Shown: piece by piece, positions 62,637-63,437 of the stretch | How the letters are laid out: every line of letters starts with the position of its first letter | Position numbering within the stretch: the stretch's first letter is position 1 | Assembly (NCBI GenBank): GCA_022695795.1 | Contig: MU404108.1 | Span: forward strand, 186,001-250,000 | Direction: 5' to 3' | Source: Biscogniauxia marginata | Taxonomy: Eukaryota > Ascomycota > Sordariomycetes > Xylariales > Xylariaceae | DNA length: 64,000 nucleotides | Translations under genes and position numbers: made by a program | The notes under the pieces: model-generated | Told to the model about the DNA's origin: nothing | What the model saw: only the letters and a program-made list of their open reading frames with translations | Databases searched by the model: none

Positions 62637-63437
62637 ATGGATCACACGCGAGATCCTTGCCCCTGGGTTATTCTCAATGATTTCGGTGGTGCATTTGCTA
62701 TGGGAGTACGTCTGCGAGAATCTTCTACTGTCAACTTTCACAATCACCGGCCTTAACCAATGCGCATCTGTGGTCTTTCTTCACTAGACTTGGGCTAACG
62801 AATATCCAGGGTAAATATTACCCTGTAACCTCTCCGAACCCTTTTTGTTGATTTATACACTCGTTTTGATGAAATCCAAAATACAAAAAGCTTACAATTA
62901 TTCAAGCTATTGGAGGAACAATATGGCATGGTATCAAGGGATTCCGAAACAGCCCCATGGGTGAGAGGCGGTTAGGTGCTGTTACTGCGATCAAGGCGAG
63001 AGCGCCTGTGCTGGGAGGCAATTTCGGCGTTTGGGGCGGTCTCTTCAGCACATTTGACTGCGCCGTGAAGGGGGTCAGGAAGAAGGAGGATCCGTGGAAC
63101 GCTATCAGTAAGTTGATGTCTGCAATTCTTGTCCCTTCTTTGCGCTTCGAAAACTGACCCTGGATGCTGTAGTCGCGGGTTTCTTCACCGGTGGTTCGTT
63201 AGCGATTCGCGGTGGCTACAAAGCAGCGAGGAACGGCGCTATCGGCTGTGCGGTGCTCCTGGCCGTTATTGAAGGTGTCGGTATTGGGTTTCAGAGAATG
63301 CTAGCAGGATCAACAAAGTTAGAGGTAATTTTTAAACCTCTCCTTCTCCCGTATGTTGTGTTGCTATCGACCCAGGAAACTGACAATGGCTCAAGGTACC
63401 ACAACCACCACCGAACACGGACCATGCTCCAGCCTAG
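62637..63437 (+). CDS. tim17: Tim17, presequence translocase channel subunit
   Basis: Exons 62637-62705, 62810 (one nucleotide), 62907-63107, 63173-63324 and 63396-63437 give 154 aa, the usual size. Tim17 is a core subunit of TIM23 in the mitochondrial inner membrane that imports presequence proteins. The N-terminus has [23 protein letters not shown]; next come [38 protein letters not shown] and [24 protein letters not shown], all typical, with four TM segments and GxxxG faces. The Cys pair (DPC, FDC) known to form a disulfide in yeast is present. The tail ends [13 protein letters not shown]. Exon 1 ends after GGA and exon 3 begins with CT, so one extra base is needed to read the conserved Ala; G62810 between ATCCAG and GTAAAT supplies it. 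Confidence 0.92.

What the first reader, a model, noticed from the sequence alone, without database searches (positions are those of the whole stretch)
62637..62930. Candidate one-nucleotide exon in tim17
Exon 1 ends ...GCT ATG GGA before GTACGT (62706). The next recognisable coding base is the CT of (G)CT ATT GGA at 62907, after TTCAAG. Direct splicing is out of frame and loses the conserved Ala of MGAIGG. In between lies GCTAACGAATATCCAG-G-GTAAATATT: a branch-point-like CTAAC, an acceptor, one G (62810) and a donor. Including only that G restores GGA-G-CT = Gly-Ala, and the total CDS (465 nt) becomes divisible by three. The alternative acceptor at 62890 would be in frame but inserts five residues into an invariant region. 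This resembles recursive splicing or the nested introns (stwintrons) known in fungi.
Basis: partly seen in the sequence, partly recalled or inferred. Interest (0 to 1): 0.78.

Follow-up and report, generated by a model that had tools for sequence, protein, structure and literature searches.

The report
One-letter exon in fungal tim17
In a fungus, the gene for a mitochondrial import protein seems to be readable only if the cell keeps a single DNA letter standing between two introns, one of the smallest exons possible and a kind reported so far in very few genes.

Summary
The tim17 exons are intact, but exon 1 (62637-62705, phase 0) and the next exon (62907-63107, needing one base before CT) do not join in frame. 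Between them the best-scoring acceptor (CTAAC..CCAG, ends 62809) and the best-scoring donor (GTAAAT, 62811) are one base apart. Keeping that G (62810) gives a 465-nt CDS reading MGAIGG, as in the solved Tim17. Of 99 splice paths tried, 12 are in frame and only this one gives that motif; such an arrangement arises by chance about 6 times in 10,000. I read it as a one-nucleotide exon between two ordinary U2 introns (104 and 96 nt), probably spliced in turn. It is not a stwintron: no splice motif is interrupted. The paralogue in the same genome (very probably Biscogniauxia marginata, Xylariales) has one plain intron at the same phase-0 place, so I infer gain of a second intron one base inside the next exon. 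A second lone-G exon is a good candidate in a GH3 beta-glucosidase gene of this genome. One-nucleotide exons are known (Arabidopsis APC11; Fusarium CYP621A, 2026): a new member of a known kind. No RNA or relatives' DNA could be examined.

The parts
62637..62705 (+). tim17 exon 1, 23 codons, ends ...GCT ATG GGA (phase 0)
   Evidence: aligns to solved Tim17 without gap from residue 2 on
62706..62809 (+). intron 1, 104 nt, GTACGT..GCTAACG..ATATCCAG; at the place of the paralogue's single phase-0 intron
   Evidence: number of the 32 training introns scoring no higher: donor 3, acceptor 21, branch 21
62810..62810 (+). lone G: candidate one-nucleotide exon, first base of the Ala24 codon G|CT
   Evidence: only path of 99 that restores MGAIGG
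62811..62906 (+). intron 2, 96 nt, GTAAATATT..GCTTACA..TTCAAG
   Evidence: number of the 32 training introns scoring no higher: donor 6, acceptor 4, branch 11
62907..63107 (+). tim17 exon 3 (CT ATT GGA ... AAC GCT ATC A)
63108..63172 (+). intron 3, 65 nt, GTAAGT..CTGACC..CTGTAG, ordinary
63173..63324 (+). tim17 exon 4
63325..63395 (+). intron 4, 71 nt, GTAATT..CTGACA..CTCAAG
63396..63437 (+). tim17 exon 5 and stop TAG
62807..62825 (+). perfect 8-bp hairpin CAGGGTAA-ATA-TTACCCTG spanning acceptor 1, the lone G and donor 2
   Evidence: RNA fold -9.3 kcal/mol

Best explanation
tim17 carries a one-nucleotide exon, G at 62810. Intron 1 (62706-62809) and intron 2 (62811-62906) are each ordinary U2 introns, recognised by intron definition. 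Because a one-base exon cannot hold two spliceosomes, they are removed one after the other, in either order. If intron 1 goes first, the junction reads GGAG|GTAAAT, a normal donor; if intron 2 goes first, it reads CAG|GCT, a normal acceptor. The mature mRNA reads ATG GGA GCT ATT GGA GGA = MGAIGG. Origin (inferred): the ancestral intron was a single phase-0 intron at GGN|GCN, as still in the paralogue; a second intron was then gained one base into the next exon, so the reading frame was never lost. Shown: the sequence anatomy, the frame arithmetic, the site ranking, the conserved protein motif and the paralogue's intron. Inferred: splicing of the lone G, the order of splicing and the evolutionary route.
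For: Frame and motif: of 99 paths, 12 are in frame and 1 gives MGAIGG. Site quality: of the 9 GT (62690-62906) and 5 AG (62720-62925) scored, the top donor is 62811 and the top acceptor 62809, exactly flanking this G. Chance 11/20,000 shuffles, 12/20,000 genomic stretches. Conservation: in a strict recount, 111 of 147 collected Tim17 proteins join the exon-1 end directly to xIGG, 99 of the 111 with Ala there (proteins, which listed the best 120 of 1700, 862 and 1235); solved Tim17 8e1m reads GGAFAMGAIGG. The locus is single copy at DNA level. The paralogue on G000:C30 has one plain intron at the same joint. A second lone-G candidate in a GH3 gene of the same genome. Precedent with RNA reads and the same AGGGT core in Fusarium CYP621A (PMC12940212, parts 1-2 of 3 read).
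Against: No transcript was available. Two of the four flanking sites are weak against 32 ab initio training introns (donor 1 3/32; acceptor 2 4/32), although tim17's ordinary intron 4 is about as weak (donor 3/32, acceptor 3/32). The lone G and both its sites lie in a stable hairpin that could hide them. Strong branch+YAG-G-GT patterns are not enriched genome-wide over the reversed-pattern control, except perhaps in the first search (10 v 5, 5 v 6, 16 v 18, 14 v 13). Relatives' predicted proteins that read through or carry an insertion mostly point to a plain phase-0 intron at this joint, and no relative's DNA could be read, so conservation of the lone-G architecture is untested.
Confidence: 0.84

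Rival explanations
1. The assembly (or the strain) has a one-base difference at an exon end, and tim17 has a single 201-nt intron; the lone G is a chance look-alike.
For: A one-base phase mismatch is what an indel produces. Read-through or inserted predicted proteins of relatives mostly have Gln just before Ala/Gly (12 of the 21 without an exon-1 end and 5 of the 7 with an insertion), as a plain phase-0 CAG|GCN acceptor would give, and the paralogue has a plain intron. Introns of 200 nt and more cannot be excluded here (8 of 37 in a permissive scan).
Against: The frame is open in every other tim17 exon. A chance look-alike this good is expected about 6 times in 10,000. A second gene shows the same architecture.
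Confidence: 0.08
2. A single 185-nt intron 62706-62890 is used and Tim17 carries five extra residues, [11 protein letters not shown].
For: In frame and still a Tim17 by Pfam (98.8 v 109.3 bits). Three single-member predicted proteins have 4-5 residues at this very joint: P0044, P0054, P0113.
Against: Acceptor AAAAAG ranks 2/32 and its best branch-like site 0/32. The insertion falls in the GGAFAMGAIGG stretch, which is gapless against the solved Tim17. The three insertions are single-member gene predictions and may be translated intron ends.
Confidence: 0.04
3. The lone G is mostly skipped: splicing 62706-62906 as one intron gives a frameshifted mRNA, and the hairpin around the G sets the ratio, so inclusion acts as a regulatory switch (unproductive splicing).
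For: The hairpin CAGGGTAA-ATA-TTACCCTG covers acceptor 1, the G and donor 2; only 50 of 5,000 shuffles of the gap hold any stem of 8 with a loop of 3-5. [quoted passage not shown]
Against: The whole region folds no better than shuffles (z 0.54). The hairpin was noticed after the fact. No transcript data.
Confidence: 0.04

Closest known systems
One-nucleotide exon of CYP621A P450 genes, Fusarium (Nelson and Syed 2026, PMC12940212; parts 1-2 of 3 read)
   Same: Single G in an AGGGT core inside one intervening sequence, needed to keep a conserved motif in frame in a filamentous ascomycete
   Different: Different gene, order and motif. There it is aligned in 20-24 genes and supported by 18 SRA reads; here one genome and no RNA. 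They propose base loss and rescue; here the paralogue favours gain of a second intron next to an old one.
One-nucleotide exon of Arabidopsis APC11 (Guo and Liu 2015, PMC4674806; parts 1-2 of 3 read)
   Same: Constitutive one-base exon between introns, missed by annotation
   Different: The base is A, in a plant, 333 nt into a 422-nt stretch; proven with constructs in protoplasts
Spliceosomal twin introns (stwintrons) of Pezizomycotina, e.g. [D1,2] and [D2,3] (PMC5639578 abstract and Background; PMC12403724 abstract and Introduction)
   Same: Adjacent U2 introns in a filamentous ascomycete that probably need two successive splicing steps; many are reported in Xylariales
   Different: In a stwintron no base is kept between the two introns and a splice motif is split; here one base is kept and all motifs are whole
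Recursive splicing at ratchet points (zero-length exons, AG|GT); recalled
   Same: Stepwise removal of one long intervening stretch
   Different: A ratchet point leaves no base in the mRNA; here one base must stay

Membership tests
single-nucleotide exon | one base directly between an AG acceptor and a GT donor | tested here: met
   AG-G-GT at 62808-62812
single-nucleotide exon | the base is required for the reading frame and restores a conserved residue | tested here: met
single-nucleotide exon | the base is present in the mRNA | not testable with these tools
   no transcript reads are held
single-nucleotide exon | architecture conserved in orthologues | tested here: inconclusive
   no fungal DNA besides this genome; predicted proteins P0054 and P0113 hint at a similar phase mismatch in Colletotrichum, while 17 others with read-through or insertion have Gln before the joint, as a plain intron would give
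stwintron | internal intron interrupts donor, branch or acceptor of the external intron | tested here: not met
   GTAAAT, CTAAC/CTTAC and CAG/AAG are all contiguous; definition read
stwintron [D1,2] | intervening sequence starts with two G | tested here: not met
   it starts A|GTACGT
stwintron (sister copies) | sequence-similar copies elsewhere in the genome (a mark of sister stwintrons, not of all) | tested here: not met
   401 nt around it match only themselves at E 0.001; intron 1 v intron 2 no similarity
stwintron | two consecutive splicing steps with a detectable intermediate | not testable with these tools
   needs RT-PCR
recursive-splicing ratchet point (definition recalled) | AG directly followed by GT, no base kept | tested here: not met
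   AGGGT, and the G is needed for frame
Tim17 | Tim17/Tim22/Tim23 domain and closest match to solved Tim17 | tested here: met
   PF02466 E 1.7e-31; 8e1m E 5.7e-74

The most novel reading that the evidence does not exclude
One-nucleotide exons are a recurrent by-product of intron gain in Pezizomycotina: a new intron enters at an AG|G site one base beside an existing intron, leaving a lone G. In this reading tim17 and a GH3 beta-glucosidase of this genome, Fusarium CYP621A, and tim17 genes of some Colletotrichum are independent cases, and the tim17 case has a hairpin over the lone G that tunes its inclusion.
Probability: 0.22. Interest if true: 0.75.

Novelty: new member of a known kind. Interest (0 to 1): 0.56.

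Why it matters
Of the papers that my searches listed for one-base exons (14, 8 and 2) I opened two, and they describe one gene or gene subfamily each: Arabidopsis APC11 and Fusarium CYP621A, the latter claiming to be the first in a fungus. Plant micro-exon catalogues (PMC8831610, PMC12409088; start of abstract seen only) may hold more. A case in a conserved mitochondrial import gene, and a probable second in the same genome, suggest that such exons are rare but recurrent and hidden by annotation software. The tim17 paralogue with a plain intron at the same place makes the origin directly testable: intron gain beside an old intron, against base loss and rescue. It also sets a clean test of how splice sites one base apart are served in turn by intron definition.

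Tried and rejected
Stwintron: rejected by definition (no interrupted motif). Other in-frame paths: 11 of 12 rejected for weak sites or wrong residues. Donor 62710 with acceptor 62906 (MGVPIGG) is in frame, but its donor ranks 0/32. Duplication of intron 1 into intron 2: no similarity (495 of 500 shuffles score as high).

A first, freer self-training of splice profiles drifted to long, poorly defined introns and was dropped; a strict one kept only 13 introns; I used a set of 32, chosen partly by consensus, so ranks against it are rough. Intron length did not discriminate.

A first count of proteins at the joint (121 of 147 without insertion, 107 with Ala) let some read-through proteins pass as normal; the stricter recount replaces it (111 of 147; 99 with Ala; three of the 21 set aside, P0046, P0067 and P0068, also read CMG/SMG-xIGG but were set aside because their exon-1 end was not found in the first 60 residues).

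Xylaria grammica P0091 and Colletotrichum P0073/P0088, which skip residues after MG, first looked like support; they may equally be short exons missed in annotation, because X. hypoxylon P0015 and C. scovillei P0123 show odd residues a little downstream. I do not count them.

Search for more lone exons in this genome: searches gave 10, 5, 16 and 14 places. I inspected L031-L040 and L042-L066 with a coding scan: 35 loci, 34 distinct places; 7 of the 30 places were not fetched. Only tim17 and GH3 stood out. The scan is insensitive: for tim17 itself the right path was not among the two best that it printed. (any lone base; HAGNGTRAGT) gave 22 and 25 places against 39 and 27 in the reversed control; 6 were fetched and none was convincing.

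Full report
What is there. The window lies in an unnamed fungal genome of 45.3 Mb. Its contig C30 is 408,378 bases long and encodes a Tim17 paralogue whose translation reads like protein P0075, listed as Biscogniauxia marginata on a contig of 408,378 bases, so the species is very probably that one (Xylariales). At 62637-63437 lies tim17. Its exons, 69+1+201+152+42 nt, make 465 nt and an intact Tim17 if the single G at 62810 is kept; without it the frame breaks. The protein hits PF02466 and the solved Tim17 8e1m, gapless through GGAFAMGAIGG.

Is the lone G more than chance? I enumerated 99 splice paths with introns of at least 40 nt and at most one extra exon; 12 are in frame without a stop and reach the conserved downstream protein, and only one gives MGAIGG. 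Of the GT and AG scored around the gap, the best acceptor is CCAG at 62809 with a GCTAACG branch and the best donor is GTAAAT at 62811. A CTRAC..YAG-G-GTRW arrangement occurs in 11 of 20,000 shuffles and 12 of 20,000 random genomic stretches; without the branch and donor context such cores are common. Of 147 collected Tim17 proteins 111 join directly at this place, 99 of them with Ala; 7 have an insertion, 8 lose the right-hand side, and 21 have no recognisable exon-1 end in the first 60 residues.

Rivals. The upstream acceptor 62890 has no good branch and would insert LTIIQ. An assembly indel cannot be excluded without reads, but it would make the strong sites around the G a coincidence. Site strength is not uniformly high: donor 1 and acceptor 2 rank 3/32 and 4/32 against a small, partly consensus-chosen training set; tim17's ordinary intron 4 ranks 3/32 and 3/32.

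How it came about. The paralogue on C30 has one 75-nt intron at the same joint, GGG|GTGAGT...CACAG|TCG, phase 0. Seventeen predicted proteins of relatives that read through from upstream or carry an insertion have Gln just before the joint (12 of 21 and 5 of 7), as expected of CAG|GCN. So intron 1 keeps both ends of the ancestral intron, and intron 2 looks like a newcomer one base into the next exon, at an AG|G site. This is inference; the alternative put forward for Fusarium, loss of a base rescued by a cryptic AGGGT (PMC12940212), is not excluded.

Splicing. With a one-base exon the two introns are most likely removed in turn by intron definition, as argued for APC11 (PMC4674806) and as reported for stwintrons of filamentous ascomycetes (PMC5639578 Background; PMC12403724 Introduction). 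Either order restores a normal site. The structure is not a stwintron, because no motif is interrupted. The lone G, its acceptor and its donor sit in a perfect 8-bp hairpin, -9.3 kcal/mol, with no other copy in the genome at up to 2 mismatches and one of two perfect stems of 8 with loops of 3-5 in the 64-kb window. The region as a whole folds no better than shuffles. The hairpin may be chance or may tune inclusion; I leave it open.

A second case. The pattern CTAACN{3,20}YAGGGTAWRT has 10 places in the genome (5 in the reversed control). One, G000:C97:155798-155820 minus, lies in a GH3 beta-glucosidase gene (PF00933)...GTGLFM | 81-nt intron | G | 66-nt intron | GA CGT TGT = R C V G N T G. Of 196 paths 18 are in frame and one gives GTGLFM-G-RCVGNTG. 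In the four solved relatives whose alignments were shown (of 60 listed) there is no gap across this joint, so the length fits; the residue itself is not conserved (Gly here, Glu or Asp there), so the support is for length and frame, not for the residue. A single-intron path with a poor donor (GTTACC) would put VGLR in place of G. Three further pattern searches, and inspection of 34 distinct places in all, gave no third good case; apart the pattern counts stay at the level of their controls, so such exons are rare here.

Literature. Searches for stwintron, single-nucleotide exon, tim17 with stwintron, six spellings of one-nucleotide exon, tim17 with micro-exon, microexon terms with fungi, six further spellings and tim17 with recursive splicing listed no title or abstract start that reports this tim17 case in the held open-access papers. 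I opened PMC12940212 and PMC4674806 (parts 1-2 of 3 each), PMC5639578 (abstract, Background), PMC12403724 (abstract, Introduction, term look-up) and PMC9024468 (term look-up only, no hit); the other listed papers, among them mitochondrial one-base exons and plant micro-exon catalogues, were seen as listings. The NAR 2017 paper on a single-nucleotide intron shift is not held and was not read.

Verdict. A well-supported candidate: a new member of a small known kind, with a testable origin and a companion candidate in the same genome. What is missing is RNA. Recalled and from no call: the definition of ratchet points.

Noticed in passing
L039 (G000:C97:155798-155820, minus strand): Second candidate lone-G exon, in a GH3 beta-glucosidase gene: 81-nt intron, G, 66-nt intron, giving GTGLFM-G-RCVGNTG, same length as solved relatives across the joint, though they have Glu or Asp where this has Gly.
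   Followed up: yes
window 62807-62825: Perfect 8-bp hairpin with a 3-base loop covers acceptor 1, the lone G and donor 2; no other copy in the genome at up to 2 mismatches.
   Followed up: partly
proteins P0054 (Colletotrichum chlorophyti) and P0113 (C. limetticola): Predicted Tim17 proteins carry LTSLP and DTCL exactly at the MG|AIGG joint. The codon before Ala (Pro, Leu) cannot be NAG, so a phase-0 AG|GCN acceptor right there is excluded; NNAG|CN fits, as in this window. LTSLP could be a translated CTNAC..CCAG intron end. A lead for the same phase mismatch in Colletotrichum; no DNA was available, and other Colletotrichum predictions read MGAIGG.
   Followed up: partly
G000:C30:19997-20497 (L030): Divergent Tim17 paralogue (79% identical over aa 23-142) with one plain phase-0 intron at the same joint.
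   Followed up: yes
L010-L027 (G000:C54:1-180000): This stretch has 277 perfect stems of 8 with loops of 3-5, against 2 in the 64-kb window; the cause was not looked into.
   Followed up: no
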